This document shows, piece by piece, positions 9,551-39,791 of a stretch of DNA of 40,122 bases. Numbering within the stretch: position 1 is the first letter of the stretch; every line of letters begins with the position of its first letter. This DNA comes from an uncultured Bacteroidales bacterium (GTDB lineage: Bacteria > Bacteroidota > Bacteroidia > Bacteroidales > P3): contig ONLW01000024.1 in NCBI GenBank assembly GCA_900318835.1, positions 1 to 40,122 of the forward strand, in the 5' to 3' direction. The position numbers and the translations under genes were made by a program. The notes beneath the pieces were generated by a model. It ran no database searches and was not told the origin of the DNA. It saw only the letters and a program-made list of their open reading frames with translations.

Positions 9551-9606
9551 CCTACCAACACCCTACCAACTCCTACCACAGTAGGAGTTGGTAGGGTGTT
9601 GGTAGG
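9551..9606. repeat. Palindromic intergenic repeat, copy 1 (26-bp perfect arms)
   Basis: The arms at 9551-9576 and 9581-9606 are perfect reverse complements of 26 nt with a 4-nt loop (CACA). Each arm contains the subunits CTACCAACACC and CTACCAACTCC, so the arm itself is a ~10-nt tandem. The centre is CCTACCACAGTAGG (9572-9585). It lies in the divergent gap between the LTA-synthase-like gene and the plus-strand secreted-protein gene, so it cannot simply be a terminator. It belongs to a five-copy family in this window. Confidence 0.95.
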
Positions 9607-9714
9607 TAGATGGTAGGTGTTTTATCCCTATCTGGTACTGACAGTTAGGCTATTTTTTGTTATTTTTTCAGTCGAGAGTAAAATATTTCTCTTGATGTCA
9701 CGTTTAGTTATCAT

Positions 9715-10692
9715 ATGAATATAAAAAGGAGCATAGTGACGTTGCTGATCGTGGCCGCAGGAATGGTGGCGCAGGCGCAGGACAAAGCGTTGATGCAGAG
9801 CTATCAGGAGCGTCTATCAACCTTGATAAGTCAGGTGCGCAATGCCCCCACGGACAATGAGCGCTATCTGGCCTCTGAGGAGGCTGTGCAGTTGCTGGCC
9901 AAGGCTTTGGACGAAGAGGATTCGGAGGAATGGAATTGGAGCCTGCCGGATTATGCTTCGGTGTTGACTTCGCCCGACGGTCTGCTGAGGGTTTTCTCTT
10001 GGGCTGTGATTCGTGACAACGGCGAGTTCGAGTGTTTTGGTATTGTGCAGTATTACAATGAGAAAGAGGAGGTTTTCGAATACCAGCTGCTCAACGACAA
10101 GTCGGAGGAAATCATGAACCGCGAGGAGAGCCTTCTCACGGCCGACAACTGGCTGGGTGCTGTTTACCAGGAGCTTATACAGACCAAAGCGGGTGACAAA
10201 ACCTACTACACGCTCCTTGGTTGGAACGGTGTGGATAATATCACCGAGCGCAAAATCATTGAGCCTGTGACCCTCCACCGCGGGGTGCCGCAATTCGGAG
10301 CTCCGCTCTTCCGCCGCATGCGCAACCAGCGCCGCATCGTCATCGAATATGCCAACGAGGCCATGGTGAACCTCGCCTACGAGACGCAATATATTCAGGA
10401 AGTGGAACGTAAGCGCGAGAAGGTGAAGGGTACCAACCGCCACCGCACCGTCGAGAAAGTGAAGGAACACAAGGAAAAGATGATCATCTTCGACGAAGTG
10501 GAACCTCAGATCCCCGGCATGGAAGGCCTCTATCAATATTATGTGCCGTCGGGCACCGAGGTGGCTTATGTATGGGTCGACGGCAAGTGGGAACTCCACG
10601 CCGGAGCCCAGGGACGCCTCACCGACAAGAAACTGAACAAGGACTTCGAACCGCTGCCCAAACAGGCTCCCAGTTACAACTATAACAAATAG
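9715..10692 (+). CDS. Secreted protein of unknown function, upstream of dxs
   Basis: 325 residues with a clear Sec signal peptide (MNIKRSIVTLLIVAAGMVAQAQ, cleavage near AQA-QD). No family recognised. The mature part starts with a helical, acidic segment (about 23-80), continues as mixed beta strands with many Trp and Tyr residues, and has a highly charged Lys/Glu/Arg stretch (about 226-262). The C-terminus (GTEVAYVWVDGKWELHAG) looks like a beta-hairpin. Only 7 bp separate it from dxs, so they probably form one transcript. It is likely periplasmic; nothing in the sequence ties it to isoprenoid synthesis apart from position. Confidence 0.82.
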   Translation: MNIKRSIVTLLIVAAGMVAQAQDKALMQSYQERLSTLISQVRNAPTDNERYLASEEAVQLLAKALDEEDSEEWNWSLPDYASVLTSPDGLLRVFSWAVIRDNGEFECFGIVQYYNEKEEVFEYQLLNDKSEEIMNREESLLTADNWLGAVYQELIQTKAGDKTYYTLLGWNGVDNITERKIIEPVTLHRGVPQFGAPLFRRMRNQRRIVIEYANEAMVNLAYETQYIQEVERKREKVKGTNRHRTVEKVKEHKEKMIIFDEVEPQIPGMEGLYQYYVPSGTEVAYVWVDGKWELHAGAQGRLTDKKLNKDFEPLPKQAPSYNYNK

Positions 10693-10699
10693 ACTCAAC

Positions 10700-12577
10700 A
10701 TGACCCTTCGCGATATCAACAGCCCTGCCGACCTCAAAAAGCTTAACCCAGGAGAGCTGCAAAGCATTGCCGACGAGCTGCGTACCTATATTGTCGACAC
10801 CCTTTCGACCCATCCTGGCCATCTGGCATCGAGTCTCGGCACTGTCGAACTCACCGTGGCTCTCCACTATGTCTTTAACACTCCCGACGACAAGCTCATC
10901 TGGGACGTGGGGCATCAGTCCTATTCCCATAAGATACTGACAGGCAGGCGCGACGCCTTCCAGACCATCCGCACCTATGGCGGCATCAGCGGCTTCCCCA
11001 AAATGAGTGAGAGCCCCTACGATGCCTTCGGTACAGGTCATAGTTCCACCTCCATCTCGGCAGCTCTCGGCATGGCTGTGGCTTCCAAATTGCAGGGCAA
11101 TCTCACACGTAAGCACATTGCCGTCATCGGTGACGGCTCGCTGACGGGTGGCGAGGCTTTCGAGGCTCTCAACAACTTGGGCCTCTCCAAGTCAAATATC
11201 CTGGTGATTCTCAACGACAACGGTATTTCCATAGACAAGGCCGTCGGCGGCCTCAACAATAACCTGATGCGCATTACCTCGTCGCCGCGCTACAACAAGC
11301 TGAAAGAGCAGGTGTGGCAGAAACTCAACACCGGAGAAGGCTGCAGAGAACGTTCCAAGAGTATCTTCCAGAGGCTCACCAAGATAGCCAAAACCATTGC
11401 CCTCGGCGACACCAATATCTTCGAGGCTTTGGGAATCCGCTATTTTGGTCCCGTCGATGGCCATGATATGCTCAAGCTCACCGAGATTCTCGAGCGTTTG
11501 AAGAATATCAACGGCCCCGTGCTGCTGCATGTGGTCACCCGCAAGGGCAAGGGACTCAAGCAAGCCGAGCAGAACCCCATTGTCTACCATGCGCCAGGCA
11601 AATATGACGCCCATACCGGCCAGCAGATTGTAAGTAGCACACAAGGTAAACCGCTTAAGTTCCAGGAAGTTTTCGGACGTACCATCATTGAACTTGCCGA
11701 GCAGAATCCCGCTATTGTGGGCATCACGCCGGCCATGGCCACAGGGTGCTCCCTCAACCTGATGATGGAACAGATGCCCGACCGTGTGTTCGACGTGGGT
11801 ATCTCGGAGCAGCATGCTGTCACATTTGCTGCCGGCCTCGCCGCACAGGGTATTGTGCCGTTCTGCAACATCTACTCTTCGTTTGCACAACGAGCCTATG
11901 ACCAGATCATCCACGACGTGGCGCTGCAGAGGCTGCATGTCGTGATTTGCCTCGACCGTGCCGGATTGGTGGGCGACGATGGCCCCACTCATCATGGTGC
12001 CTTCGACTTGGCTGCTTTGCGTCCCATCCCCAACCTCACCATCTGCGCCCCCATGGACGACCATGAGTTGCGCGATATGATGTTCACCGCTCAATTGCCC
12101 AACCATGGTCCTGTGGTTATTCGTTATCCCCGTGGTTCAAGCATTTACAACGACTGGCAATCACCAATGAAGGAGTTGAGAATAGGGGAGGGCCGCTGTC
12201 TGAAAGAGGGTAGCGACGTGGCTTACGTCAGCCTCGGTTTCCCTGGGAATGATGCTCTTTCCGCTGCCAAAGAATTAGAAAAACAAGGAATCTCTGCCGC
12301 CGTCTATGACATGCGATTCCTCAAACCACTCGACACCCAGTTGCTTGACACAATTGCAGCAAAAGGATTCCGCAAGATTATCACCGTTGAGGATGGCGTG
12401 AAGTTTGGTGGCTTTGGAGAATCTGTGGAGAGTTATTTCGCCGAGCATCATCCTGAGCAGTGCAAGATTATTACAATACTTGCCATTCCAGACACTTTTG
12501 TCACTCATGGCAGCGTGCCTCAGCTGAAGCACGATTGCCACATTGACCAGCAATCCCTTATTGACGCTGCTAAATGA
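10700..12577 (+). CDS. dxs: 1-deoxy-D-xylulose-5-phosphate synthase
   Basis: 625 residues, normal length. It condenses pyruvate and glyceraldehyde-3-phosphate with thiamine diphosphate, the first step of the MEP isoprenoid pathway. The N-terminal TPP domain has the GDGSLTGGEAFEALNN motif (GDG...NN) and GHSSTSISAALGMA. The central pyrimidine-binding domain has DVGISEQHAVTFAAGLA with the catalytic Glu, plus CNIYSSFAQRAYDQIIHDVALQ and RAGLVGDDGPTHHGAFD. The C-terminal transketolase domain contains VAYVSLGFPGNDAL and TVEDGVKFGGFG. It follows the secreted protein gene by 7 bp and converges on the thioesterase gene. Confidence 0.98.
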   Translation: MTLRDINSPADLKKLNPGELQSIADELRTYIVDTLSTHPGHLASSLGTVELTVALHYVFNTPDDKLIWDVGHQSYSHKILTGRRDAFQTIRTYGGISGFPKMSESPYDAFGTGHSSTSISAALGMAVASKLQGNLTRKHIAVIGDGSLTGGEAFEALNNLGLSKSNILVILNDNGISIDKAVGGLNNNLMRITSSPRYNKLKEQVWQKLNTGEGCRERSKSIFQRLTKIAKTIALGDTNIFEALGIRYFGPVDGHDMLKLTEILERLKNINGPVLLHVVTRKGKGLKQAEQNPIVYHAPGKYDAHTGQQIVSSTQGKPLKFQEVFGRTIIELAEQNPAIVGITPAMATGCSLNLMMEQMPDRVFDVGISEQHAVTFAAGLAAQGIVPFCNIYSSFAQRAYDQIIHDVALQRLHVVICLDRAGLVGDDGPTHHGAFDLAALRPIPNLTICAPMDDHELRDMMFTAQLPNHGPVVIRYPRGSSIYNDWQSPMKELRIGEGRCLKEGSDVAYVSLGFPGNDALSAAKELEKQGISAAVYDMRFLKPLDTQLLDTIAAKGFRKIITVEDGVKFGGFGESVESYFAEHHPEQCKIITILAIPDTFVTHGSVPQLKHDCHIDQQSLIDAAK

Positions 12578-12591
12578 TGTAGAAAGAAATA

Positions 12592-12641
12592 GGGGTTATG
12601 TTTTAGGATTCATATAAGAATATCCTACTTAACATAACCCC
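12592..12641. terminator. Bidirectional hairpin between convergent dxs and thioesterase genes
   Basis: GGGGTTATGTT (12592-12602) and AACATAACCCC (12631-12641) are perfect 11-nt inverted arms. The 28-nt loop contains a second stem (AGGAT/ATCCT). On the minus strand the hairpin is followed by a T-rich run (TATTTCTTTCT), so it looks like a terminator for the thioesterase transcript; on the plus strand the U-tract is weak. It is unrelated in sequence to the CCTACC palindromes. Confidence 0.65.
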
Positions 12642-13420: not shown

Positions 13421-15202
13421 TTACATTCTTTCCGGCACCTCGATGCCAAGGATATTCATAGTGTTCTTCAGTGCGTTAGCCACCATGGCGCAAAGTTGCA
13501 CACGGAAATGCTTCAGCTGTGCATCCTCTTCGCGCAGGATGGGAGTGTCCTGATAGAAACTATTGAAAGCCTTGGCCAGGTCGTAGGCGTAGTTGGCCAC
13601 CATGGCGGGGCTGTAAGCGGCGGCCGCGGCAGCCACGGTCTCGGGCAGAGCGTGCAGAGCCTTCACCACTCCCCTCTCCTTTTCATTCATCTTGATTGAC
13701 GTAGCAGGTAGCGTCTCTACATCCCCAGCCTTGCGCACGATGCTGCGGATACGGGCATGTGTGTACTGGATGAAGGGACCTGTGTTGCCGTTGAAGTCAA
13801 TACTCTCAGCGGGATTGAACAACATGTTCTTGGTGGGGTCGACTTTGAGAATGAAGTATTTGAGTGCGCCGAGGGCGAGGATATGGTACAGGTGACGCTG
13901 CTCCTCGGGGCTCAGTTCGTCGTTCTTGCCGTGCTCACGGCTCATCTCCTCAGCAGTCTTCTCCATCTCGTCGATAAGGTCGTCGGCGTCCACCACAGTG
14001 CCTTCACGGCTCTTCATCTTGCCGTTGGGAAGTTCCACCATGCCGTAGCTGAGGTGGTAGACCTTGTCGGCCCACTCGAATCCCAACTTGCCAAGGATGA
14101 GTTTGAGCACCTTGAAGTGGTAATCCTGCTCATTTCCTACGACGTATATCAGTCGTTCGGCACCAAAGTCTTTATGGCGCAACAGCGCCGTGCCGAGATC
14201 TTGGGTCATGTAGACGGAGGTGCCGTCCTTGCGGAGCAGAAGCTTTTGGTCGAGGCCGTCGCCCGTGAGGTCGCACCACACCGAGCCGTCCTCCTTGCGG
14301 AACAGTACACCTAAATCCAAGCCTTTCTGCACCAACTCTTTGCCAAGCAGATAAGTGTTCGATTCGTAATAGACTTTGTCGAAGCCAACGCCAAGTCGGT
14401 TGTAGGTCTCGTCGAAGCCGGCATACACCCATCCATTCATCTTCTCCCACAGCGCACGCACCTCTTTGTCACCCTCTTCCCAACGCTTCAGCATGCTCTG
14501 GGCCTCCACCATCAGGGGAGCTTGCTTCTTGGCCTGCTCCTCCTCTACCCCACTATCCATCAGCTGCTTAACTTCATCTTTATAATGTTTGTCAAACTCC
14601 ACATAATACTTGCCCACCAGATGGTCACCTTTCATGCCGGAGCTCTCCGGGGTCTCACCATTACCGTATCGCAGCCAAGCCAACATGCTCTTGCAGATGT
14701 GGATGCCGCGATCGTTCACCAGATTCACCTTCTTCACATTGGCACCGTTGGCAGCCAACAACTGGCTCACCGACCAGCCCAAAAGATTGTTTCGGATATG
14801 GCCCAAGTGCAAAGGTTTGTTGGTGTTTGGACTACTGTACTCAACCACCACCGGAGCCTCATTGGGGGCTGCTTTGGCAATGCCGAAGCTCACGTCGGAT
14901 GCCTTCTCGGCCACAAAGGAAGTCCAGTAAGAGTCGGCTACCTCGAAGTTGAGGAAGCCCTTGATGACGTTGAATCCCTCGACGAGCGGGAGGGCAGCCT
15001 TCACGGCCTCGCCAATCTCGTTGGCCACCGCCTCGGGGCTCTTGCGGGCCTGCTTCACATAGGGGAACACGACAAGTGTGTAGTCGCCCTTGAATTCCTT
15101 GCGGGTATCCTGCAAAACAATGCTTTTGGCATCGGCCTCGATGCCGTAGAGATTCTTCAGTGCGTTGGCAACTGCCTGAGAAAGAGTGGTTGTAATATTC
15201 AT
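13421..15202 (-). CDS. argS: Arginyl-tRNA synthetase
   Basis: 593 residues, a full-length class I synthetase that charges tRNA-Arg. The N-terminal Add1 tRNA-binding domain (about 1-105) is followed by the Rossmann catalytic domain with the HIGH-type motif HLGH (in SSPNTNKPLHLGHIRNN) and a KMSKS-like MKSREGT. The C-terminal anticodon-binding DALR domain ends in the ANALKNTMNILGIEVPERM stretch. It starts at ATG 15202 behind a likely promoter at 15235-15264, and is followed after 5 bp by the thioesterase gene. Confidence 0.98.
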   Translation of the reverse strand: MNITTTLSQAVANALKNLYGIEADAKSIVLQDTRKEFKGDYTLVVFPYVKQARKSPEAVANEIGEAVKAALPLVEGFNVIKGFLNFEVADSYWTSFVAEKASDVSFGIAKAAPNEAPVVVEYSSPNTNKPLHLGHIRNNLLGWSVSQLLAANGANVKKVNLVNDRGIHICKSMLAWLRYGNGETPESSGMKGDHLVGKYYVEFDKHYKDEVKQLMDSGVEEEQAKKQAPLMVEAQSMLKRWEEGDKEVRALWEKMNGWVYAGFDETYNRLGVGFDKVYYESNTYLLGKELVQKGLDLGVLFRKEDGSVWCDLTGDGLDQKLLLRKDGTSVYMTQDLGTALLRHKDFGAERLIYVVGNEQDYHFKVLKLILGKLGFEWADKVYHLSYGMVELPNGKMKSREGTVVDADDLIDEMEKTAEEMSREHGKNDELSPEEQRHLYHILALGALKYFILKVDPTKNMLFNPAESIDFNGNTGPFIQYTHARIRSIVRKAGDVETLPATSIKMNEKERGVVKALHALPETVAAAAAAYSPAMVANYAYDLAKAFNSFYQDTPILREEDAQLKHFRVQLCAMVANALKNTMNILGIEVPERM

Positions 15203-15264: not shown

Positions 15265-15306
15265 GGCCAAAAATCCACCAAAAACTAACTATCTATAAAC
15301 CAGTTG

Positions 15307-15365
15307 CCAACACCCTACCAACGCCTAACCAACTCCTACTATAGTAGGACTTGATAGGGTGTTGG
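15307..15365. repeat. Palindromic intergenic repeat, copy 2 (asymmetric)
   Basis: Outer arms CCAACACCCTA (15307-15317) and TAGGGTGTTGG (15355-15365) are perfect. The centre CCTACTATAGTAGG (15335-15348) is a perfect 14-bp palindrome. The left arm has an extra ~11-nt unit (CCAACGCCTAA) absent from the right arm, showing three consecutive CCAAC-starting units. It sits in the divergent gap between argS and the plus-strand exported-protein gene. Confidence 0.92.
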
Positions 15366-15458
15366 TAGGGTCTTCGTTGGCGTTTGGACTCTTGTTGACC
15401 AAGAGAAATCCCCTTTTAACGACACAATATAACAGGCGGTATTGCGTTATATAATATT

Positions 15459-16250
15459 ATGAACCACGGGAAGAACATCTGCAAGCATTTGAAGGAGGTG
15501 CGGAAACGCATCGCCGAGGAGAATGATATTCCTCTGGAGATTGAAGAGTGCACCTACAAGGGCGAGTGCCGTGGGACTTGTCCGAGGTGCGAGGCCGAGG
15601 TGCGGTATTTGGAAAAATCATTGGCAGAGAGGATTAGTCTCGGAAAGGTGGCCACCGTCGCCGGCCTGGCGTTGGGGTTGGCTACGCCAGGTGTCGCCAC
15701 GGCGCAGGACACTGTCAGTACGAAAGATTCAAAAGTTATTCCGATTATTGAGATTCCATCAGGATATTCTATGGGGATAATTACGGAGGATCCCCAAAAG
15801 TTGGAATATATCCCAGTGGATACCCTACCGATGGTGTTGCCCATCAACAGAAATGTTTCGTTAAACTCCACAGGTAAAATCAAGGGTCTCATTGTGGACC
15901 AGGACAGGAATCCTGTTCCCTACGCCAACGTGCTGCTATACAAAGACGGCGAAGAAGTTTTTTTCGCGAATGAGATTTCCGACTCCACCGGCAACTATCT
16001 TATTGAAGGCCTCGACCCCGGAACCTATGATATGAAAGTGTCTTCCGTCGGCTACCGTCTCTATGAGAGGGTAGGAATCAAGGTAAAAGAGACGGGTTTC
16101 ACTGTGGTAGACCTTCAATTGATGTCGCTCGACGCACCGCTGCCCGAGGAAATTATTATTGGAATGTCCACCATCCCTATGATAGAGCTGGATCCTAACG
16201 GTCCCTCCCAACAGATGGAACGCGAGGGTGTGAAAGTCATTGTCAGATAG
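15459..16250 (+). CDS. Cysteine-motif leader protein with carboxypeptidase-regulatory-like domain
   Basis: 263 residues in three parts. Residues 1-60 are hydrophilic and helical with a C-x5-C-x3-C-x2-C motif (C31, C37, C41, C44; EECTYKGECRGTCPRCEAE), plus C8. Residues 64-82 (VATVAGLALGLATPGVATAQ) look like a signal-anchor or late signal peptide with an ATA-QD type cleavage site. Residues ~138-222 form a CarboxypepD_reg-like beta sandwich (GKIKGLIVDQDRNPVPYANV, then STGNYLIEGLDPGTYDMKVSSVGY). I recall similar Cys-rich N-termini in other Bacteroidales exported proteins, but no function. The four cysteines could bind zinc or an Fe-S cluster in the cytoplasm before export. It precedes the M20 peptidase gene by 25 bp. 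Confidence 0.85.
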   Translation: MNHGKNICKHLKEVRKRIAEENDIPLEIEECTYKGECRGTCPRCEAEVRYLEKSLAERISLGKVATVAGLALGLATPGVATAQDTVSTKDSKVIPIIEIPSGYSMGIITEDPQKLEYIPVDTLPMVLPINRNVSLNSTGKIKGLIVDQDRNPVPYANVLLYKDGEEVFFANEISDSTGNYLIEGLDPGTYDMKVSSVGYRLYERVGIKVKETGFTVVDLQLMSLDAPLPEEIIIGMSTIPMIELDPNGPSQQMEREGVKVIVR

Positions 16251-17666: not shown

Positions 17667-17817
17667 GTAAAGGCAACGGAGAAATAGAGTAACTCCAGAA
17701 ACCTCAGAGAGTTAGGGCAAGTCTTATACGACCAGCTCCCATTGAATCCCCCAGGGTAGGAATACAGCAAGGGTGTTTGGTTGTAGCGGTGCGATATAAA
17801 ACAGCTTGCCCTTTTTT
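17667..17817 (+). ncRNA. ffs: Signal recognition particle RNA (4.5S/SRP small), with 5' extension
   Basis: The conserved SRP domain IV apical hairpin is clear: CCCAGG, GGAA tetraloop, AGCAAGGG (around 17750-17773). A closing stem pairs GGGCAAG (17715-17721) with CTTGCCC (17805-17811), followed by six T residues (17812-17817) that terminate transcription. The core is about 105 nt, typical of the short bacterial form that binds Ffh. The predicted start at ~17667 adds about 48 nt containing its own hairpin (TAACTC 17690-17695 with GAGTTA 17709-17714) abutting the core stem, so either the 5' end is processed or the RNA is longer than usual. Confidence 0.85.
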
Positions 17818-21445: not shown

Positions 21446-22003
21446 ATGAAAAACATCGTTATTTTCGGAGCCCCGGGTGCCGGCAAGGGTACCCAGAGCG
21501 ATTTCATCGTTGAGACCTACGGCCTGACCCATGTCTCCACCGGAGACCTTCTCCGCAAGGAGATTGCCGACCAGACCGAACTCGGCCTCCGCATCAAGAG
21601 CATCATGGATGCCGGACAGCTCGTCAGCGACGACATCGTTGTCGAGATGATGGACAAAGCCATTGCCGCCGACACCAAAGGCATGCTCTTCGACGGCTTC
21701 CCCCGCACCGTGGCACAGGCCGAAACTCTTGACAAGCTGCTGGCCAAGCATGGCCGCGAACTCACCTGCATGGTGCAGCTTGAGGTGCCGAAAGACGAGT
21801 TGATGCGCCGTCTACTCGAACGCGCCAAAATTCAGGGCCGCGCCGACGACAATGAGGCCACCATCAACAACCGCCTCCTGGAGTACAACAATAAGACCAA
21901 GCCCGTGGCAGACTACTATGCCAAGCAGGGCAAGCAGTGTGTTGTCGACGGCCTCGGCACCATCGAGGACATCGCCGCCCGCATCCGCCAGGCCATTGGT
22001 TGA
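21446..22003 (+). CDS. adk: Adenylate kinase (short-LID form)
   Basis: 185 residues, lacking the long zinc-finger LID of the E. coli enzyme, as is usual in this phylum. Converts ATP + AMP to two ADP. P-loop GAPGAGKGTQ (residues 8-17), AMP-binding STGDLLRKEI and FDGFPRTVAQAE, and the short lid RAKIQGRADDNEATINNRL. The transcript ends at a terminator at 22113-22135; a palindromic repeat sits between the stop codon and that terminator. Confidence 0.97.
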   Translation: MKNIVIFGAPGAGKGTQSDFIVETYGLTHVSTGDLLRKEIADQTELGLRIKSIMDAGQLVSDDIVVEMMDKAIAADTKGMLFDGFPRTVAQAETLDKLLAKHGRELTCMVQLEVPKDELMRRLLERAKIQGRADDNEATINNRLLEYNNKTKPVADYYAKQGKQCVVDGLGTIEDIAARIRQAIG

Positions 22004-22012
22004 GCCATTCGA

Positions 22013-22093
22013 CCTACCAACACCCTATCAACTCCCTATCAAGTCCTACCACGGTAGGAGTTGGTAGGGAGTTGGTTACTGGTTGATAGGTAG
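22013..22093. repeat. Palindromic intergenic repeat, copy 3 (longest, imperfect outer arms)
   Basis: Centre CCTACCACGGTAGG (22045-22058). Arms extend through CTACCAACACC on the left and GTTGATAGGTAG on the right. The inner 22 bp of the arms pair with two non-Watson-Crick positions, one being a U-G wobble in the plus-strand RNA; the outer part has extra unpaired units. It lies between adk and its terminator, in a co-directional gap, so it is transcribed as 3' UTR. Confidence 0.92.
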
Positions 22094-22112
22094 TTAGCCT
22101 TAAGTGCCTCCG

Positions 22113-22135
22113 ACCCCGTTTCGGGGTGTTTTTTT
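22113..22135 (+). terminator. Rho-independent terminator of adk
   Basis: Stem ACCCCG (22113-22118), loop TTT, CGGGGT (22122-22127), then GTTTTTTT. A compact, strong intrinsic terminator 110 bp after the adk stop codon. Confidence 0.9.
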
Positions 22136-22197: not shown

Positions 22198-23190
22198 ATG
22201 ACCTCGAACTTTGTAGACTACGTGAAGATATTGGTGCGGAGCGGCAAGGGTGGAGCGGGAAGCGCCCACCTGTTGCGTGTGAAGTACAACGCCAAGGCGG
22301 GTCCCGACGGCGGCGACGGTGGCCGCGGTGGCCATGTCATCCTGCGAGGCACTACCCAGCGTTGGACCCTTTTGCACCTGAAATACACCAAGCATGTCTT
22401 CGCCGAAGACGGTGAGCACGGCGGCGAGAACCTCTGCACCGGCCGCACTGGCCGCGACCAGATTCTCGAGGTGCCGCTGGGCTGCGTCTGCCGCGATGCC
22501 GAGTCCGGCGAGGTACTTGGCGAGGTGACCGAGGAAGGCCAGGAACTTATCATCGCCAAGGGGGGGCGTGGGGGCTTGGGCAACGACCATTTCAAGAGCC
22601 CCACCAACCAGACTCCCCGCTACGCACAACCCGGCGAGCCTGCCGTGGAACGCTGGGTTATCATTGAGTTGAAAGTGCTTGCCGATGTGGGACTTGTTGG
22701 ATTCCCCAATGCCGGCAAGAGCACCTTCCTCAGCGTCGTCAGCGCCGCCAAGCCCGAGATTGCCAACTACCCCTTCACCACCCTTGTGCCCAATCTGGGT
22801 ATCGTGAAATACCGTGACGACCGTTCGTTCTGCATCGCCGACATTCCCGGCATCATCGAGGGCGCTGCCGAGGGCAAGGGTCTGGGTCTGCGCTTTTTGC
22901 GCCACATCGAACGCAACTCAATACTCCTCTTCATGGTTAGTTGCGAGCAGCTGGAGATCGCCAAGGAGTATCACATCCTGCTCGAAGAGTTGAAAAAATA
23001 CAACCCAGAACTGCTTGACAAACAGCGCATCCTGGCTGTCACCAAGTGTGACATGATGGACGAGGAGATGCAGAAACAGCTGAAGCGCCACCTGCCCAAG
23101 GGGGTGGAGTCCATCTTCATAAGTGCCGTCAGCGGACAGAATATTCAGGAACTTAAAGATCTGATATACAAGAAACTGACTTCTGAATGA
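22198..23190 (+). CDS. obgE: Obg family GTPase
   Basis: 330 residues. The glycine-rich Obg fold (about 1-158) starts [21 protein letters not shown] and contains repeated [10 protein letters not shown] turns. The G domain (about 160-330) has G1 GFPNAGKST, switch region [11 protein letters not shown]3 DIPGIIEGA and G4 TKCD. It binds the large ribosomal subunit and acts in ribosome assembly and stress control. The C-terminal OCT extension is absent. The PAP2 gene starts inside its stop codon (ATGA). No clear TAnnTTTG promoter is seen in the 60 bases between the adk terminator and its ATG. Confidence 0.97.
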
Positions 23191-28758: not shown

Positions 28759-29328
28759 ATGGAACAAAATATTGACCTTAAAAAGCAACTGCAACAGGAA
28801 CTTAGCGGTCTGCAACAGCATATAGAACAGCACAGTACCTTCCGCAGCGATGTATGGCGGCGGTCGGTGGAGCGGCATGCCCGCCGCCTGCGCAGGATAA
28901 ACATCGCAAGTGCAATAATACTTATTGGATTCATGATAATATGGGCCGTGGTGTTCCTTAACGATCACTATACACCGTGGTGGGCGGTGGTACTGATAGA
29001 GGCGTACTTCGGCTACATTGTAGTCGACGCCCTCTTGGCCTCACGCGGGATGAGACACCTCCGCAACCGCGAAGAGGTGCGCACCTTGCGCGAGAATATC
29101 GACCGAAGCAAAAAAAACAATATTTACAAAAAAGCTCTTCTTACCATTGTTGGCGTTTTGGTACTGGGAATAATAATATTCATCGCCTTTAGGGCAGGCC
29201 AAACGGCAATCGAAATACTGCTGCCAATAGTTGTCAGCGCCATAATAGGCCCCTTAACACTAAGACCCCTCAACCGCTCGCACCGCGAACTAAGCGACGA
29301 AGTGGATGAACTGCTGAAAGAAGATTGA
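28759..29328 (+). CDS. Membrane protein, possible anti-sigma partner
   Basis: 189 residues. A cytoplasmic N-terminus of about 45 residues, helical and rich in Gln/Arg (DLKKQLQQELSGLQQHIEQH, then WRRSVERHARRLRR), is followed by four hydrophobic segments (about 47-68, 73-92, 123-143, 150-172) and an acidic tail (LSDEVDELLKED). It lacks the zinc-anti-sigma HxxxCxxC motif. The position 12 bp after an ECF sigma gene suggests it restrains that sigma factor at the membrane; the sequence alone does not prove it. Confidence 0.82.
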   Translation: MEQNIDLKKQLQQELSGLQQHIEQHSTFRSDVWRRSVERHARRLRRINIASAIILIGFMIIWAVVFLNDHYTPWWAVVLIEAYFGYIVVDALLASRGMRHLRNREEVRTLRENIDRSKKNNIYKKALLTIVGVLVLGIIIFIAFRAGQTAIEILLPIVVSAIIGPLTLRPLNRSHRELSDEVDELLKED

Positions 29329-29350
29329 TATAGAGAGCGATAAACCACCT

Positions 29351-29400
29351 ACCAACACCCTATCAACTCCTACCATGGTAGGAGTTGGTAGGGTGTTGGT
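29351..29400. repeat. Palindromic intergenic repeat, copy 4
   Basis: 25-bp arms (29351-29375 and 29376-29400) with no loop and one mismatch, which is a U-G wobble in plus-strand RNA. The centre is CCTACCATGGTAGG (29369-29382). It fills most of the convergent gap between the membrane-protein gene and the M16-like gene, where it could also act as a two-way terminator. Confidence 0.95.
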
Positions 29401-29435
29401 ATGGGGGAGATAGGGTAATTATTTTAACAAAATGG

Positions 29436-30689
29436 TTAGAGGGCACCGGCACGGCAGATGGTCATCTGTTCCGAGGCAAGATAGGTAGCGGCGAGGCGCT
29501 GGAGGTCGGCAGAGGTGGTCGACTGGATAGCCTCGCGGAGGTTGTCGGTGAAACGCTCCGTGATATCGGAGCCAAGCATGTCGCAAAAACGTGCCGAACG
29601 CTCAAAGATGCCATCGACCGAGCGAAGGAAGTCACCTGCGAGCACGGTACGTACAAGGTCCAGCTCATCCCCTGCAACAGGCTCGTCAACAAGGCGTTGC
29701 AATTCGAGCATAATTTCTTTCTCGGCCTCGTTGACCACACTTCCAGCCACATCGGCGGTGATATAGAAGACAATGACGCCGCGATAGATCTGTGTGCGGG
29801 CGTAGATACCGTAGGTGTAGCCCTTGTCCTCACGGAGGTTGCTCATCAGGCGCGAGCCAAAGTAGCCTCCGAGGAGGGTAACAAGGAGTGTAAGTCGCGC
29901 ATAGTCAATATCATCCCAACGCAAAGGCAGGATGCGCCCCACGCGAATGGTAGATTGGACGGAGGAAGGAAGGTGAAAGGTGAGAGGTGAAAGGTGAGAG
30001 GTGGGAGATGGTAAGGGAAGGGACAAATGTTTTGGGGAATCGGAAGGGGTATCGTGGCCGAAGCGGTCGTCGATGGCGGCCAGCAGACGGTCGTCGACAT
30101 GTCCCGCGAGGACGATGTCCATGTCGCCGGCACGGTGATAGTCAGCATAATGCCGCTTCACCATGTCGAGATCCAGTCGGTCGGCATCCGTGGGCGTGGC
30201 GTAGGCTCCCAGAGGGTGGTCGAAGCTGAAGAGACTCTCATAGAACAATCTCCTCGCCATATCGGAACTCTTCTGCTGCGAGGCCATAATCTTCTGGCGG
30301 CGCTCACGGCGGTAGATGCCAAATTCCCTTTCGGGGAAGGCAGGCGCATGCACCAGGTCGTCAATCACGGGCAGCAAGTCGCCGAGATGGCGGCTGAGGG
30401 TGTAGAAAGTTGCAGTGCTCTGAAGCGCAGTATTGTTACTCTCCACAATGATACCACGGAAGTCCATGAACTCCGACAGCCGTTCGGCATCCATGCGCTC
30501 GCTGGCCACAGAGAAAAGCTTGTTGGCGGCGGCTGCCACAAGGGGTTCCTGTTGGTAGGCCGAGCCAGCCTCACTCAATAGGTCAATTTTCACCAACTCG
30601 GTGGCAGAAGGGAAACAATAAAGCTTTCGGCCGTTGGCAAGGTGGTGCTCATGCGGCACAAGGGGGTCGGTCTGCGGAATGGAAATCAT
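29436..30689 (-). CDS. M16-family peptidase-like protein lacking the HxxEH site
   Basis: 417 residues with the two-domain layout of M16 peptidases: GSAYQQEPLVAAAANKLFSVASERM (42-66) at the active-site helix position, LGAYATPTDADRL, and a second domain with LGGYFGSRLMSNLREDKGYTYGIYA, the characteristic R...Y motif. The zinc motif HxxEH and downstream Glu are absent (NKLFSVASE in its place), so it is probably a non-catalytic subunit. There is no signal peptide. A linker around residues 226-240 (SPTSHLSPLTFHLPSS) is encoded by a 7-nt tandem repeat. Its ATG overlaps the TonB receptor stop by one base (TGATG). Confidence 0.88.
   Translation of the reverse strand: MISIPQTDPLVPHEHHLANGRKLYCFPSATELVKIDLLSEAGSAYQQEPLVAAAANKLFSVASERMDAERLSEFMDFRGIIVESNNTALQSTATFYTLSRHLGDLLPVIDDLVHAPAFPEREFGIYRRERRQKIMASQQKSSDMARRLFYESLFSFDHPLGAYATPTDADRLDLDMVKRHYADYHRAGDMDIVLAGHVDDRLLAAIDDRFGHDTPSDSPKHLSLPLPSPTSHLSPLTFHLPSSVQSTIRVGRILPLRWDDIDYARLTLLVTLLGGYFGSRLMSNLREDKGYTYGIYARTQIYRGVIVFYITADVAGSVVNEAEKEIMLELQRLVDEPVAGDELDLVRTVLAGDFLRSVDGIFERSARFCDMLGSDITERFTDNLREAIQSTTSADLQRLAATYLASEQMTICRAGAL
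29972..30013. repeat. Heptanucleotide tandem repeat inside the M16-like gene
   Basis: Six 7-nt units on the plus strand: GGTGAAA, GGTGAGA, GGTGAAA, GGTGAGA, GGTGGGA, GATGGTA. The first four form a perfect 14-nt dimer repeat. Because seven is not a multiple of three, loss or gain of one unit shifts the M16-like reading frame. Confidence 0.9.
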
Positions 30690-34429: not shown

Positions 34430-37012
34430 TTATTCTTCCGTTTGATTATTAGTATCCGTTGTTTCGGAATTATTGCTCTCGGAAACCACATTTTCCACTC
34501 CTTCGGCGTTCTCGGCAGGCTGTTCCTCCTCATTGTCGGTAGGAACCTTGGTGATGGAGGCGATGTAGTCCTTACCGCGCAGGTCGATGAGTTTCACACC
34601 TTGGGTGGCACGTCCGAGGACACGCAGGTCGGACACCTTCATGCGGATGGTGATGCCACTGCGGTTGATAATCATTAGGTCGTGGTCGTCGGTGACATTG
34701 GTCACAGCCACCAGCGGGCCGGTCTTTTCGGTGATCTGCATGGCTTTGACACCTTTGCCACCACGGTGGACGGTGGCGCGGTAATCCTTGAGCGAGGAAC
34801 GTTTGCCGTAACCATGCTCGGTAACCACCAGCAGATTCTCCTCCTCGCTGGGCAGGCAAAGCATCTCGATGGCGGCATCGTCGCTGCCGTCGAGGTCCAT
34901 ACCCTTCACACCCGAAGCTCCACGGCCCATGGCGCGGAATTCCTTCTCGGGGCAAATCATCACCTTGCCCTTCTTCGAGGCTATGAGCATGTAGCTCTCG
35001 CCGTCGGTAAGGCAAGCAGTGAGCAACTCGTCACCCTCGCGGATGCCGATTGCGATGATACCATTGGTACGCGGACGGGAGTAAGCCTCCAGCGGCGTCT
35101 TCTTCACGATACCGTTCTTGGTGCACATCACGATGTAGTGGTTGCCCACATACTCGCTGTTGCTCAGGCTTTCCACATTGACGTAGGCTTTCACCTTGTC
35201 GTCGGGCTCGATGTTGATGACATTGAGTATCGGGCGGCCCTTGGTGTTGCGTTCACCCTCGGGCACCTCGAAGGCGCGCATCCAGTAGCAGCGGCCCTTT
35301 TCGGTGAAGAAGAGCAGGTAGTTGTGGTTGGTGCAGGTGAAGATGTGCTCCACGAAGTCCTCCGAGCGGACGGCGCTGCCCTTGGCACCCACGCCGCCGC
35401 GGCTCTGCGTGCGGTATTCGGTGAGGGGCGTGCGCTTGATGTAGCCCTTGTGGCTGATGGTGATGACCACCTGCTCGTCGGGGATGGTGTCCTCGATGCG
35501 GAAGCCGGCGGCATCGTATTTGATGATGGTGCGGCGCTCGTCGCCGTATTTCTCCTTCAGCTCGACAAACTCGCCTTTGATGACACCCATCAGCACGTTG
35601 TGGTCGCCGAGAATCTCTTTGCAACGCTCGATGAAGCGCAGCTTCTCGTCGTATTCGTCCTGGAGTTTCTGGTGGTTCAAGCCGGTGAGCTGTGCCAGGC
35701 GCATGTCGACGATAGCGCGGCTCTGCGGGTCGCTGAAGCCGAACTTCTCCATCAGTCCCACGCGGGCGTCCTCGGGGCTCTTGCTGGCCTTGATGAGGGC
35801 CACAATCTCGTCGATGATGTCAATGGCGCGCAGCAGACCTTCGAGGATGTGGGCGCGGCGCATGGCCTCGTCCATCTCGAACTGCGTGCGGCGCGTCACC
35901 ACCTCTTCGCGGTGCTCCACGAAGTACTGGATGAGCTGCTTGAGGTTCAGCAGCTGCGGACGGCCGTGCACCAGGGCGATGTTGTTCACGGCGAAGCTGC
36001 TCTGCAACTCGGTGAACTGGAACAACTTGTTCAGTATGACGTTGGGGACCACATCGTGGCGCAGCATGTACACCACGCGGATGCCGTCCTTGTCGCTCTC
36101 GTCGCGGATGTCGGTGATGCCCTCAATCTTGCCGGCCTTCACCAGCTCGGCGGTCTTCTTAATCATCTCGGCCTTGTTCACGCCGTAGGGGATGGTCGAC
36201 GCCACAATCATGTTGCGGCCCTTCGAGTCCTCCTCGATTTCGGTGATGGCGCGGATGATGATGCTGCCGCGGCCCGTGGTGTACGCCTCGCGCACGCCGT
36301 TGTAGCCGTAGATGATGCCACCCAGCGGGAAGTCGGGAGCCTTGATATACTGCATCAGCTCCTCTATGGTAATCTCGCTCTCCCACTTGCCACTCTCCTC
36401 TTTCAACTTGCCCTTGTCGATATAGGCAATGCAGCCGTCCAGCACCTCGGTGAGGTTGTGCGTGGGCATATTGGTGGCCATACCGACGGCGATGCCGTTG
36501 GAGCCGTTGATGAGCAGGTTGGGAATTTTGGCGGGCAGCACCGAGGGCTCCTCGCCCTCGTTGTCGTAGGTGGGCACCATGTCGACGGTGTTCTTGTCGA
36601 TGTCGGCCACCAGCTCGTTGCTTATCTGTTTTAGGCGGGCCTCGGTATAACGCATGGCGGCGGGCGAATCGCCGTCGATGGAGCCGAAGTTACCCTGTCC
36701 GTCGACCAGCGTGTAGCGCATCGACCAGTCCTGTGCCAGACGCACCAGGGCACCATAGATACTCGAGTCGCCGTGGGGGTGATACTTACCCATCACGTCA
36801 CCCACAATACGTGCCGACTTCTTGGTAGGAGTGTTGTAGAGAATGCCGTTCTCGTTCATCGAGTAGAGGATGCGGCGGTGCACCGGCTTGAAACCGTCAC
36901 GCACATCGGGCAGTGCCCTCGCCACGATGACCGACATAGCATAGTCGATATAGGCCGTTTTCATTGTGGTCTCGATATCGACTCTTTTGATTCTGTCGTT
37001 TTCTAAAGCCAT
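34430..37012 (-). CDS. gyrA: DNA gyrase subunit A
   Basis: 860 residues. The N-terminal breakage-reunion domain starts [32 protein letters not shown] and includes the QRM quinolone-region [25 protein letters not shown] and the catalytic Tyr in [10 protein letters not shown]. The C-terminal beta-pinwheel carries a GyrA-box of the form [10 protein letters not shown], which separates GyrA from ParC. The tail after about 825 is acidic and low complexity ([21 protein letters not shown]), as often seen. It introduces negative supercoils together with GyrB. A -7 element lies at 37088-37095. Confidence 0.98.
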
Positions 37013-37087
37013 CAGTCGTTAGTTATTATATATTATATTATTGTATACCATTTATTTAATGGCACAGCTCACCTGTACCTTAAAAAA

Positions 37088-37095
37088 CAAAGATA
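37088..37095 (-). promoter_or_regulatory. Bacteroidota -7 element for gyrA
   Basis: Minus-strand TATCTTTG is an exact TAnnTTTG match. No TTTG -33 box at 18-21 bp; the expected place is A/T-rich. Predicted 5' UTR is about 70 nt. Confidence 0.5.
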
Positions 37096-37135
37096 CAACT
37101 TTTTTTTGATTCTAACTGAAAAAATTATCAACACC

Positions 37136-39625
37136 TCATCGGATGAGTGTGACGGTGCCGAGGAGCGTCTGATGCTCGTCGGGATAAATGTCGACACGAT
37201 AGTGCAGCACCCAGACGTAGGCTCCCTGCGGACAGGCCTCCCCTTGGTGGGTGCCATCCCATGCGGGTGTCGGTCCTTTGATGCGGCTCACCAGCAGCCC
37301 TTGGCGGTTATAGATGAGCAGTTCCTCGGCGACCCCCTCATGCAACGTCACCGCAAATCGGTTGTTGGTTTCCGCATCCGGGGTGAAGACATTGGGAATC
37401 CACTGCGTGGCGTGCGAGAAAGGAAGGGTGCGCCGCAGGGTGTCGGGGCAGGTGCTGCCGTTGAGCACCAGCATCACCTCAACACTGTCGTTCTCGGACG
37501 AGGCGAAGTAATACAGATGAGCGCTGTTTTCACCTTGAAGTATCTGATTAACATACCACTGGCGCTCAGTCACATGTCGACTGATATCGTAGGCATTGAG
37601 CCAGGGATGCTCGTAGGTGAGGATGTCGGGGTTGATTTCCCACGCAGCATCAACTCCTTCGACAGGCAAAAGAATGACAGTATCTCTGAAGGGACAGATG
37701 TAATCGACATCGAGGGCATAGAGCGTGGCACCGCCGGGTTTGACAATAACGGCGGTGTCGTGCTCATGGCCGTCGAGCATCGTGTCGTGAGGCGACGACG
37801 ACCAAACGAACGGCCACCTTTCCTCCTCCGAGAAGTTGACAGAAAGACTGTAGGTTGCCTCTAGGCAATCCACATCGCGAAGGATGGTCATCGCAGGACG
37901 CGGGATGACGGTGAGGTCCAGCATCATGATGGAATCACAGCCGTGAGAAGTCTCCAACGTGTCGCCATAGATGCCTGTACTGTCGAAAATATGTCCTCGC
38001 CATGTGTATGGCTCGAAGCAACTGGTGTCGGTGAAGGTTTCCAAATGACTGGGATAGACACGGATATTGGCAAAAAGAGTGTCGCAGGAAAAGATAGCCT
38101 CGATGCGGTAGACTCCACTGGCGTCCGGAGTGAATTTAAAACAGCTGGTGTCAATATCTATCACTGAGGAATTGATTCTCCATACAGGAACAACATCTTT
38201 TCCGTCGCTTTTAATCCACACATTGATGGTATCGCCCACACAATAGTACAGCGTGTCTGTTCTACTACGCATAGTACGGTCGTCGACATATAGCTTCTCT
38301 GTGAGATTGTTGTTTGCGGAGCCAGCATTATAGGCATAGCCTTCAGCCAAGCCGCCTATGTGGCTGAGGCCATAGCACCAAGCCACAAACCTACCACTGT
38401 CGCAGCTGAGTGTGTGGTCGCCCTCCGGGACAGAAAGGCGCGCGTAGGCGTAGCCGCCGGGAGTCGCCGTGAAGCAGCTGTCGATGGGGACGCCATCGAA
38501 TCTAATAAAGGGTACAGCACTGTTTGGAGCGACGATATTGGCGTGGTGCAACGTGACGGAAGGGGTGCCGAGAGAACGAAACATGGAGTAGGAAACAGCT
38601 TGCTGCAACGGCGGTATGAGGACTGATGCGGGGTCGCCTTTCTTGTCGTCGTTGCACCAATTCCCCTTCATGTACAGCATGGCGGAGACAGGTCTCGTGC
38701 TTCGCAGGATTCCTGCCGAGTCGGACGGCAGGTTGTACAGAAAGCTTTCCCCTGCCTGAAGAGTGGCCAGCAGAGTGTCGTTGAAATAGATATCGCAACA
38801 GTTTCTGAGCGAGGTAATCTGCACCAAGTCGCCCGAAGTACGCTCAGCCGTGGACACCAGCATAAACCGATTGCCCCAAAAGTCGACAGGGAGTGCCTGT
38901 TCATAGAGAAGGTCGGCGGCAAGGGTATCCCCGACATTGGTCCGTGGTGATCCTTGGAACATGGCGAAGGGTTTGCCGTTGGAGGTTACCTCCATGCCCG
39001 AGAAATCGCTTCCGCCCATCCGGTAGCACTGTCCGTGCATAAGGGTTACACTACGCGCCCCAAAACCGGGCACATTCATGGAGAGTCTTGTATTGTTCTC
39101 CACGGCGACAAATCCCACCTCCGTTTTATCATTCTCGCTGTAGGATTGGACCATGTAGTGGGTATCTATGGTCGTTGTGGGATAGACGGTAGCGGCTTCG
39201 TATATCCCAGGCTTGTAACTGGAAGCATATAGAAATATAGGTCGGCTGGAGGTGACATGGATACCCCCGGAATAGGTCACGGCATACACACCCACCTGGC
39301 TTGCCTCCTGAAAAGCTGTCGTCGCGGGAACATTTATAGTTACACAGCCTGTCGCCGTGGCAGTGTCGGTCACGCTCCAGCCGGTAGACAGGTTACTGGC
39401 TCTGACGACGGTACCGCTATCGCACGCGGCAATGAGTTTATAGCTCACCACCGCAGCATCATTATTTCGAAGGAACATCACCCAGAAATCCGTACCCATA
39501 GTGGGATTGTAAACACCCTGCCCGTGACCGGCAAGCGGCATCAGCAACAGAAAAACAATCGATAGCCGCCTCGCCATCACGCTGGCAGCTATCCGAAAGA
39601 ACCTGTTGCTGAAATATTTATCCAT
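37136..39625 (-). CDS. Large secreted protein with IgGFc-binding-like N-terminus and gliding/T9SS type-B C-terminal domain
   Basis: 829 residues. Signal peptide ARRLSIVFLLLMPLAGHGQG; the ATG at 39625 gives 16 extra residues, and a later ATG at residue 17 (MARRLS) is an equally good start. Residues ~40-440 resemble the N-terminal region of IgGFc-binding-like proteins found in Bacteroidota (GTDFWVMFLRNND, IFLYASSYKPG). Several Ig-like/Cys-containing repeats follow (for example SCFEPYTWRGHIFDSTGIYGDTL). The last ~85 residues are a gliding-motility-associated C-terminal domain (WIPNVFTPDAETNNRFAV, then LLIYNRQGLLVS and WDGTHQGEACPQGAYVWVL), which directs type IX secretion. A TAnnTTTG-like -7 lies at 39650-39657. 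Confidence 0.9.
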   Translation of the reverse strand: MDKYFSNRFFRIAASVMARRLSIVFLLLMPLAGHGQGVYNPTMGTDFWVMFLRNNDAAVVSYKLIAACDSGTVVRASNLSTGWSVTDTATATGCVTINVPATTAFQEASQVGVYAVTYSGGIHVTSSRPIFLYASSYKPGIYEAATVYPTTTIDTHYMVQSYSENDKTEVGFVAVENNTRLSMNVPGFGARSVTLMHGQCYRMGGSDFSGMEVTSNGKPFAMFQGSPRTNVGDTLAADLLYEQALPVDFWGNRFMLVSTAERTSGDLVQITSLRNCCDIYFNDTLLATLQAGESFLYNLPSDSAGILRSTRPVSAMLYMKGNWCNDDKKGDPASVLIPPLQQAVSYSMFRSLGTPSVTLHHANIVAPNSAVPFIRFDGVPIDSCFTATPGGYAYARLSVPEGDHTLSCDSGRFVAWCYGLSHIGGLAEGYAYNAGSANNNLTEKLYVDDRTMRSRTDTLYYCVGDTINVWIKSDGKDVVPVWRINSSVIDIDTSCFKFTPDASGVYRIEAIFSCDTLFANIRVYPSHLETFTDTSCFEPYTWRGHIFDSTGIYGDTLETSHGCDSIMMLDLTVIPRPAMTILRDVDCLEATYSLSVNFSEEERWPFVWSSSPHDTMLDGHEHDTAVIVKPGGATLYALDVDYICPFRDTVILLPVEGVDAAWEINPDILTYEHPWLNAYDISRHVTERQWYVNQILQGENSAHLYYFASSENDSVEVMLVLNGSTCPDTLRRTLPFSHATQWIPNVFTPDAETNNRFAVTLHEGVAEELLIYNRQGLLVSRIKGPTPAWDGTHQGEACPQGAYVWVLHYRVDIYPDEHQTLLGTVTLIR

Positions 39626-39649
39626 ACCGGCACCTCTCTTTTGATTTTA

Positions 39650-39657
39650 CAAATATA
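39650..39657 (-). promoter_or_regulatory. Bacteroidota -7 element for the secreted-protein gene
   Basis: Minus-strand TATATTTG matches TAnnTTTG. The upstream region is A/T-rich without a well-placed TTTG. Predicted start near 39643, about 18 bases before the ATG at 39625. Confidence 0.5.
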
Positions 39658-39694
39658 CAAATAAAAACAAACAAATAAAAAAACTCATCATTAA

Positions 39695-39736
39695 AAACTG
39701 TAAACTTTAAATATTAAACTGTAAACTTTAAACCCT
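39695..39736 (+). repeat. Heptanucleotide tandem repeat AAACNNT-type, six units
   Basis: Units in order: AAACTGT, AAACTTT, AAATATT, AAACTGT, AAACTTT, AAACCCT. The 21-nt block of the first three is nearly repeated by the next three. It lies in the divergent gap, directly before palindromic copy 5, and has the same 7-nt period as the repeats at 27238 and 29972, with unrelated sequence. Confidence 0.9.
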
Positions 39737-39791
39737 TACCATCCCCCAACCATCCCCCTATCAACTCCTACCACGGTAGGTGATGGTAGGG
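39737..39791. repeat. Palindromic intergenic repeat, copy 5 (degenerate)
   Basis: Centre CCTACCACGGTAGG (39767-39780), identical to copy 3. Inner arms CCCTATCAACTCC (39756-39768) and GGTGATGGTAGGG (39779-39791) pair with a few mismatches. The left flank holds further degenerate units (TTACCATCCCCCAACCATCC). It is the most decayed copy. Confidence 0.85.

What the first reader, a model, noticed from the sequence alone, without database searches (positions are those of the whole stretch)
9551..39791. Five-copy family of long palindromic intergenic elements (CCTACCNNGGTAGG core)
Copies centre at about 9578, 15341, 22051, 29375 and 39773, i.e. spaced 5.8, 6.7, 7.3 and 10.4 kb. Copies 1 and 4 have 25-26-bp arms that are perfect or have one wobble; the others are asymmetric or decayed. 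Arms are made of ~10-11-nt units CTACCAACWCC, so the element looks grown by unit duplication inside an inverted repeat. All copies are intergenic, in divergent (1, 2, 5), co-directional (3) and convergent (4) gaps, so termination alone does not explain them. They resemble REP-type elements, but no transposase is adjacent. Alternatives: a nucleoid or gyrase binding site, an mRNA-stabilising hairpin, or a mobile element mobilised in trans. I know of no named family with this sequence.
Basis: partly seen in the sequence, partly recalled or inferred. Interest (0 to 1): 0.78.

Follow-up and report, generated by a model that had tools for sequence, protein, structure and literature searches.

The report
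Evenly spaced 11-base chromosomal repeat arrays
The five palindromes belong to a class of short DNA arrays, built from 11-base units and placed between genes about every ten thousand bases in a group of rumen bacteria, that look like landing sites for an unknown chromosome-organising protein.

Summary
The five copies are real and belong to a genome-wide family: 70 copies in 787 kb (34%) of this genome, about 200 if extrapolated; none lies inside a predicted gene. They are not REPs: the genome's two Y1/RAYT genes are flanked by other palindromes, and copy-rich relative G009 has no Y1 hit. The arms do not covary (71.1% paired, 71.0% after shuffling). Each arm is a run of ~11-bp units, as in a protein site on double-stranded DNA.

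Three further results. Copies are more evenly spaced than chance: mean 11 kb, 0 of 56 intervals below 3.5 kb against 11-15 expected. Other species of the genus carry intergenic arrays of unrelated sequence with the same 11-bp period (153 windows at lag 11, 6 and 5 at lags 10 and 12). Spacing is even also in G048 and G064, in G064 although neighbouring arrays mostly have unrelated units; G045 is not even. Positions tend to be conserved while units differ (small numbers).

Best reading: phased protein-binding arrays punctuating the chromosome about every 10 kb. The protein is unknown and the function untested.

The parts
9535..9622 (.). Copy 1, palindromic array of ~11-bp units; gap between a sulfatase gene (7036-9453, -) and an unassigned gene (9715-10692, +)
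   Evidence: Profile match; 26 uninterrupted pairs; neighbours; orthologous copies in G009 and G045
15299..15384 (.). Copy 2, decayed palindromic array; gap between arginyl-tRNA synthetase (13421-15202, -) and a carboxypeptidase-regulatory-like protein (15459-16250, +)
   Evidence: Profile match; neighbours; copy in G045 at the same gene, and an array of other units (CATCTCTTACT) in the G048 gap orthologous to the G045 one
22010..22095 (.). Copy 3, asymmetric palindromic array; gap between adenylate kinase (21446-22003, +) and an Obg GTPase (22198-23190, +)
   Evidence: Profile match; neighbours; copies in G009 and G045, while the flanks are only 43-48% identical
29338..29417 (.). Copy 4, near-perfect palindromic array; convergent gap between 28759-29328 (+, weak DUF2207 match) and an M16-type peptidase gene (29436-30689, -)
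   Evidence: Profile match; neighbours; copy in G009
39731..39805 (.). Copy 5, most decayed; right of an IgGFc-binding/CHU_C-domain protein gene (37136-39625, -); right neighbour outside the window
   Evidence: Profile match; neighbour; weakest fold of the five (z -3.0)

Best explanation
Double-stranded DNA protein-binding arrays. Shown here: runs of ~11-bp units, one per helical turn, often in two inverted arms around a dyad; intergenic; vertically inherited; more evenly spaced than chance in own, G048, G064 and one of two G009 contigs, not in G045; in the genus the period is shared while the unit sequence is not. Inferred: a protein binds successive turns on one face of the helix and forms a filament or wrap starting at the dyad (information per unit falls outward); such complexes must stand at roughly regular distances, most simply as boundaries or anchors of ~10-kb chromosomal (supercoiling or nucleoid) domains. 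As neighbouring arrays in one genome can have unrelated units and still keep their distance, either one protein reads the 11-bp period more than the sequence, or several proteins do the same job.
For: Intergenic only, 65 of 70 copies in gaps, 5 near contig or stretch ends, 0 in genes. Spacing: 0 of 56 intervals under 3.5 kb, 11.0-14.7 expected in three nulls, 0 of 3000 permutations in each; G048 P 0.0013/0.0017, G064 0.0073/0.006. Phasing 0, 10, 21, 32, 43. No arm covariation. Lag-11 windows 76 + 77 against 1 + 5 at lag 10 and 2 + 3 at lag 12; 0 in 234 kb of nine other families. In G064, 14 of 15 neighbouring pairs are of different unit clusters yet at least 4.2 kb apart. Orthologous gaps outside the clade: 7 both, 4 one, 11 neither, p 0.0046. 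Orthologous copies 81% identical, random copies 66%, flanks 48%. Information per unit 1.46, 1.16, 0.87, 0.54, 0.24, 0.15 bits outward.
Against: No binding protein identified and no functional data. G045 (140 kb) is not evenly spaced, P 0.63; G009 C1 only marginal. The lag-11 excess is not distinct in G001, G002 and G021. Lags 7, 8, 9 and 14 are also raised, so other tandem repeats occur in this DNA. Near-centre positions 4, 5, 6, 10, 12 and 17 do show excess pairing, and single copies fold into very stable hairpins. If one protein binds all arrays, the variety of units within G064 is hard to square with sequence-specific binding.
Confidence: 0.42

Rival explanations
1. Non-autonomous mobile repeats (REP- or MITE-like) spread by a transposase in trans and now mostly fixed; slippage or unequal exchange makes the tandem units.
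For: High copy number and lineage-specific amplification: G000 131, G009 122, G045 100 core matches, most of the other genomes searched near control level. Presence/absence differences exist, e.g. copy at own C35:34241 absent from the G009 gap.
Against: No copy in the two own Y1 loci; 1 of 23 Y1 loci of eight relatives holds a copy, on one side only; G009 has no Y1 hit. No match in plasmid or phage records. Spacing is even across unrelated units. Positions tend to be shared by species with different units. No clean empty site or target duplication seen, but only one pair was examined.
Confidence: 0.2
2. Arrays are strong gyrase (or other topoisomerase) sites that wrap ~130 bp, placed to relax supercoils about every 10 kb.
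For: Footprint ~120-130 bp around a dyad with ~11-bp periodicity; the E. coli gyrase motif is 130 bp with 10.75-bp periodic flanks, and BIME-2 repeats are enriched in gyrase cleavage sites (passages of PMC6379681).
Against: The gyrase motif is periodic in GC content; here GC power at 11 bp is below column-permuted arrays (1.24 v 3.56; 2.72 v 3.74). Lag 10 is nearly absent, so the step is 11, not 10.75. High sequence identity among copies is not needed for wrapping.
Confidence: 0.1
3. RNA or single-strand hairpins: terminators, attenuators or transcript-stabilising stems.
For: Window copies fold far better than shuffles (z -3.0 to -8.8); 3161 candidate RNAs of human microbiomes include 250 palindromic ones, some mostly in Bacteroidetes (passages of PMC8040213).
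Against: Arms do not covary; 24 of 65 copies lie in divergent gaps; no Rfam match at the copies; related arrays in G048 are mostly one-sided runs.
Confidence: 0.1
4. A self-mark or DNA-uptake signal: any ~10-kb piece of chromosome carries one.
For: Even spacing, lineage-specific sequence, no match in phage or plasmid records.
Against: Several unit clusters occur in one genome (6 among 18 arrays in G064), whereas uptake sequences are, as I recall, one short motif per species. Competence was not tested.
Confidence: 0.07
5. Neutral tandem-repeat growth by slippage in long intergenic gaps.
For: Lags 7, 8, 9 and 14 are also raised.
Against: Lag 11 far exceeds lags 10 and 12 with many unrelated units; spacing is even against nulls weighted by gap length; orthologous copies are more alike than random copies and than flanks.
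Confidence: 0.08

Closest known systems
REP / BIME elements with RAYT transposases
   Same: Dispersed intergenic palindromes in many copies, lineage-specific
   Different: REPs are 20-40 bp, tagged GTAG or CGTC at one end (passages of PMC3733652). Here ~90-130 bp, units of 11 bp, no terminal tag, no cognate RAYT found, evenly spaced, other sequences with the same period in relatives
DNA gyrase motif / strong gyrase sites
   Same: Dyad, ~130-bp footprint, about one helical turn of periodicity
   Different: Gyrase motif is degenerate and GC-phased at 10.75 bp (PMC6379681); here GC is not phased at 11 bp
parC centromere bound by ParR (plasmid R1)
   Same: R1 ParR needs at least two 11-bp direct repeats (passages of PMC9426499)
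   Different: A plasmid centromere beside parM; here about 200 dispersed chromosomal sites (extrapolated), often inverted
matS, Noc and SlmA sites (recalled, not looked up)
   Same: Dispersed chromosomal binding sites of one architectural protein
   Different: As recalled: one conserved motif, regional distribution, no 11-bp arrays
DNA uptake sequences
   Same: Hundreds of copies, lineage-specific, often intergenic inverted pairs (recalled; listing of PMC1852404)
   Different: As recalled a single short motif at higher density, also in genes (abstract start of PMC2346458)

Membership tests
REP / REPtron | RAYT (Y1) gene flanked by the same palindrome | tested here: not met
   Own: 2 of 2 Y1 loci have other palindromes and no copy. 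Eight relatives: 1 of 23 Y1 loci holds a copy, about 1.3 kb away on one side. The 3.3-kb loci limit the view
REP / REPtron | GTAG or CGTC tag at one end of a 20-40-bp palindrome | tested here: not met
   GTAG recurs in every unit rather than at one end; footprint ~120-130 bp; definition
REP / RNA hairpin | Arms kept complementary (compensatory changes) | tested here: not met
   71.1% v 71.0% paired; covariation score reached by 72 of 500 shuffles. A few near-centre positions do covary
MITE | Terminal inverted repeats with target-site duplication | tested here: inconclusive
   One presence/absence pair aligned, flanks too diverged to read
Intrinsic terminator | Hairpin plus T-run downstream of genes | tested here: not met
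   24 of 65 copies in divergent gaps. Copy 3 has a separate terminator-like hairpin beside it at 22108-22127; 11 such sites found in the region, 8.0 expected
E. coli-type gyrase motif | GC content phased at about one helical turn in the flanks | tested here: not met
   GC power at 11 bp 1.24 v 3.56 and 2.72 v 3.74 in the permuted null
E. coli-type gyrase motif | Cleavage by gyrase in vivo | not testable with these tools
   Needs Topo-Seq
parC/ParR | 11-bp repeats in phase | tested here: met
   analogy only
parC/ParR | ParR-family protein encoded | tested here: inconclusive
   PF10784: 0 of 31 genomes, but the 14 control genomes did not ring either
DNA uptake sequence | One conserved short motif per species (recalled) | tested here: not met
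   6 unit clusters in G064, 3 in G048
Nucleoid / domain-boundary site | Bound by an architectural protein; domain edge at the site | not testable with these tools
   Needs ChIP-seq and Hi-C

The most novel reading that the evidence does not exclude
A new kind of chromosome-wide site in which the 11-bp helical period, not the sequence, is the conserved signal: one array about every 10 kb acts as a topological or nucleoid punctuation mark, and its unit sequence can be replaced at the same position without loss of function.
Probability: 0.3. Interest if true: 0.92.

Novelty: categorically new. Interest (0 to 1): 0.82.

Why it matters
Whether bacterial chromosomes carry fixed, regularly placed marks for domains of about 10 kb is, as far as I know, open; the architecture sites I recall are few or regional. 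Here many species of one genus carry helically phased arrays, evenly spaced in most genomes tested, whose positions tend to be conserved while their sequences turn over. That makes the question testable: find the protein, delete or rephase one array, and read supercoiling and contact maps. It also offers a natural series of unit replacements with which to ask what a DNA-wrapping or filament-forming protein really reads.

Tried and rejected
REP/RAYT: rejected, no cognate transposase and no terminal tag. RNA or ssDNA hairpin: rejected on covariation and gap type. Gyrase-type GC phasing: not met.

Synteny breakpoints or recombination hot spots: several blocks shared with G009 and G045 end at copies, but counts are weak. 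Own to G045: 8 broken, 1 kept at ends with an array; 5 and 6 without (p 0.058). Own to G009: p 0.48. G009 to G045: p 0.14. Own to G048, G064, G015: p 0.76, 0.77, 0.21.

Avoidance of recombination between close repeats as the cause of even spacing: unlikely, as neighbours of unrelated sequence keep their distance too (smallest different-cluster distance 4.3 kb in G064, 5.2 in G048, 3.6 in G022).

First guess that species without the CTACC element lack such elements: wrong. A palindrome search found little, but the lag-11 search found other units.

C-to-G strand-switch scan: 62 of 82 intergenic hits in own were known copies; not used further. ParR search: uninformative. Viral contigs: 0 hits for the strict pattern; the 2 hits of a shorter one lie in AT-rich repeats without 11-bp units. 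Model R1 could not count copies: 150 candidates scored in own, 36 per genome in the genus search. Literature: 10 searches, two of which returned nothing; no title or abstract start listed describes such arrays. Passages only were read of PMC12393610, PMC9426499, PMC6379681, PMC3733652 and PMC8040213; of PMC7537859 abstract and outline.
Full report
WHAT IS THERE. The five palindromes are in the window as described. Copy 1 has 26 uninterrupted pairs; copy 4 has 12 and then one G-U in a longer stem; the others are broken sooner. Three of five have the exact core CCTACCNNGGTAGG. In the genome the 18-base core with up to three mismatches gives 158 forward matches against 11 for the reversed pattern. 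A profile built from 23 copies (18 loci and the five window copies) finds 70 copies in 786,581 bases, 34% of the 2.34-Mb genome; I extrapolate about 200. On the reversed sequence the best match has E 0.09.

WHERE THEY LIE. With a simple codon-based gene finder (578 genes, 88% coding), 65 of 70 copies lie in gaps between predicted genes, 5 lie near ends of fetched contigs or stretches outside predicted genes, none inside a gene. Gaps of at least 90 bp holding a copy: 24 of 51 divergent, 10 of 21 convergent, 31 of 134 co-directional. Short co-directional gaps are mostly empty, 4 of 61 below 200 bp. This fits neither promoters nor terminators.

EVEN SPACING. Mean interval 11.0 kb over 61 intervals, CV 0.52, minimum 3.8 kb. 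For the 65 copies placed in gaps there are 56 intervals, none below 3.5 kb. Three permutation schemes that use only real intergenic gaps (any gap; matched for type and length; copies per contig kept) expect 14.7, 11.8 and 11.0; none of 3,000 permutations in each reached zero. In relatives, with gaps weighted by length only, P for CV and for close pairs: G048 0.0013 and 0.0017; G064 0.0073 and 0.006; G009 C2 0.0013 and 0.066; G009 C1 0.058 and 0.26; G045 C53 0.63 and 0.47, so not even.

ANATOMY. Reading outward from the dyad, in 103 copies of G000, G009 and G045, unit matches start at 0, 10, 21, 32 and 43 in 480 of 488 cases. A variant with an extra T before AGG lacks a base after it, so the 11-bp step is kept. 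Information per unit falls outward, 1.46, 1.16, 0.87, 0.54, 0.24, 0.15 bits, then background: a footprint of about 120-130 bp. The arms do not covary as a hairpin would. In 38 own-genome copies (those with high palindrome scores lying within one fetched stretch) 71.1% of cells pair against 71.0% after shuffling, and 72 of 500 shuffles reach the covariation score. In the 103 copies pairing equals expectation at most positions, exceeds it near the centre at 4, 5, 6, 10, 12 and 17 (z 3.5 to 9.1), and falls below it at several outer positions. Each arm thus mostly follows the consensus on its own, as half-sites of a protein site would. Against this, single copies fold into stable hairpins (z -3.0 to -8.8).

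INHERITANCE AND CONSTRAINT. At strictly orthologous gaps within own/G009/G045 both have a copy in 6, one in 1, neither in 9. Twelve orthologous pairs are 81% identical over 90 bp; random own-relative pairs of copies 66%; flanks 60-100 bp away 48%; unrelated sequence 29%. The pairs were chosen because both members are recognised, so 81% is to be judged against 66%.

NOT A REP SYSTEM. G000 has two Y1 transposase genes. One sits among GGTAGCCAGCCGTTTCAACGGCTGG palindromes, the other between GGGCGTACACGGGGGTACGCCCCTAC palindromes; neither 3.3-kb locus holds our element. Of 23 Y1 loci in eight relatives one (L147, G002) holds a copy, about 1.3 kb away and on one side. G009 has 122 core matches and no Y1 hit. 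There is no match in plasmid or phage records and no Rfam match at the copies.

A CLASS, NOT ONE FAMILY. The core is abundant in few species: G000 131, G009 122, G045 100, G007 25, G035 20, G002 19, the rest near control level; 30 of 118 genomes have any match. Searching instead for self-similarity of intergenic DNA at a fixed lag gave an excess at lag 11: 76 windows in own/G009/G045 and 77 in other genus members. Lag 10 has 1 and 5, lag 12 has 2 and 3; Markov-resampled intergenic DNA 0 to 2. In nine other families of the order (234 kb, about 27 kb intergenic) there are none. Lags 7 (21 and 46), 8 (6 and 17), 9 (6 and 15) and 14 (7 and 21) are raised too, and lag 22 (21 and 33) as expected for the double. 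In 16 further genus genomes sampled at 18-20 kb (4 of the 20 pieces were under 4 kb and left out), 13 windows at lag 11 lie in 10 genomes, against 1 at lag 10, 2 at lag 12 and 6 at lag 8. The excess is not distinct in G001, G002 and G021.

The units differ: CCGTACATGCA and CATCTCTTACT in G048; TTCTTCAACAG, GTCGGACTTCA, AACCTGCTATT and CCAAGAGTATA in G064; TAGGTCTATGG in G015; GGCCGAAGGGG in G022; CGACCTTAACA in G016. Some are palindromic, others mostly one-sided. In G064, 14 of 15 neighbouring pairs are of different unit clusters, the closest 4.3 kb apart; in G048 the closest of 8 such pairs is 5.2 kb apart (single linkage, which may over-merge). So the spacing rule seems to ignore unit sequence, which argues against family-specific immunity and against recombination avoidance.

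POSITION WITHOUT SEQUENCE. In strictly orthologous gaps (both neighbours orthologous and adjacent, at least 120 bp) between species outside the clade pairs, both have an array in 7, one in 4, neither in 11 (p 0.0046). For the clade against species with other units: 6, 3 and 7 (p 0.020). Two of these rows share one G048 gap. A looser gene-end test gives odds ratio 3.3 with partly dependent counts. Examples: own C16:86236 with AACTCCTACCC units against G015:61620 with TAGGTCTATGG; and the G045 counterpart of window copy 2 against a CATCTCTTACT array in G048.

MECHANISM. The simplest reading is a protein that binds one unit per helical turn, from the dyad outward, at sites that recur about every 10 kb. 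I tested whether GC content is phased as in the E. coli gyrase motif (10.75-bp periodic; passages of PMC6379681). It is not: GC power at 11 bp is 1.24 against 3.56 for column-permuted arrays in the clade, 2.72 against 3.74 elsewhere; the third harmonic is raised in both groups, 6.01 against 3.54 and 5.59 against 3.82, which I cannot explain. The known case with the same period that I found is ParR of plasmid R1 (passages of PMC9426499); an analogy only, and the ParR search was uninformative.

LIMITS. All genomes are incomplete assemblies, gene calls are mine, and the samples are parts of genomes. The binding protein is unknown. Function rests on spacing, phasing and conservation, not on an experiment. 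The novelty grade rests on my knowledge and ten literature searches of an open-access library.

Noticed in passing
L019 (G000:C23, around 53.3-53.7 kb) and L020 (G000:C32, around 25.1-25.3 kb): Two Y1/RAYT-type transposase genes, each beside its own kind of REP-like palindrome whose foot contains GTAG; they look like two ordinary REP systems unrelated to the finding.
   Followed up: partly
window 17708-17815, +: Bacteroidales small SRP RNA, Rfam RF04183, 107 bits.
   Followed up: no
window 39695-39733 and 29970-30003; also other genus members: Heptad tandem repeats (AAACTTT, AAGGTGA); self-similarity at lag 7 is raised in intergenic DNA of the genus.
   Followed up: no
own C20:40517, C22:115904, C32:37570-37660; G001 C7 around 52.7-55.0 kb: Another dispersed palindrome type, CTCACCCCC(n)CCCCTCTCC...GGAGAGGGG, in this genome and in G001.
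   Followed up: no
G001:C7:58337 and G040:C1:16978: Very regular 11-bp arrays with AT-rich or mixed units (TTTATTAGAGA, GTATAGTCGTG), 89% and 95% self-identity at lag 11.
   Followed up: no
arrays of the genus: Within the 11-bp units GC content shows a raised third harmonic (period 3.67 bp) in both groups of genomes; unexplained.
   Followed up: partly
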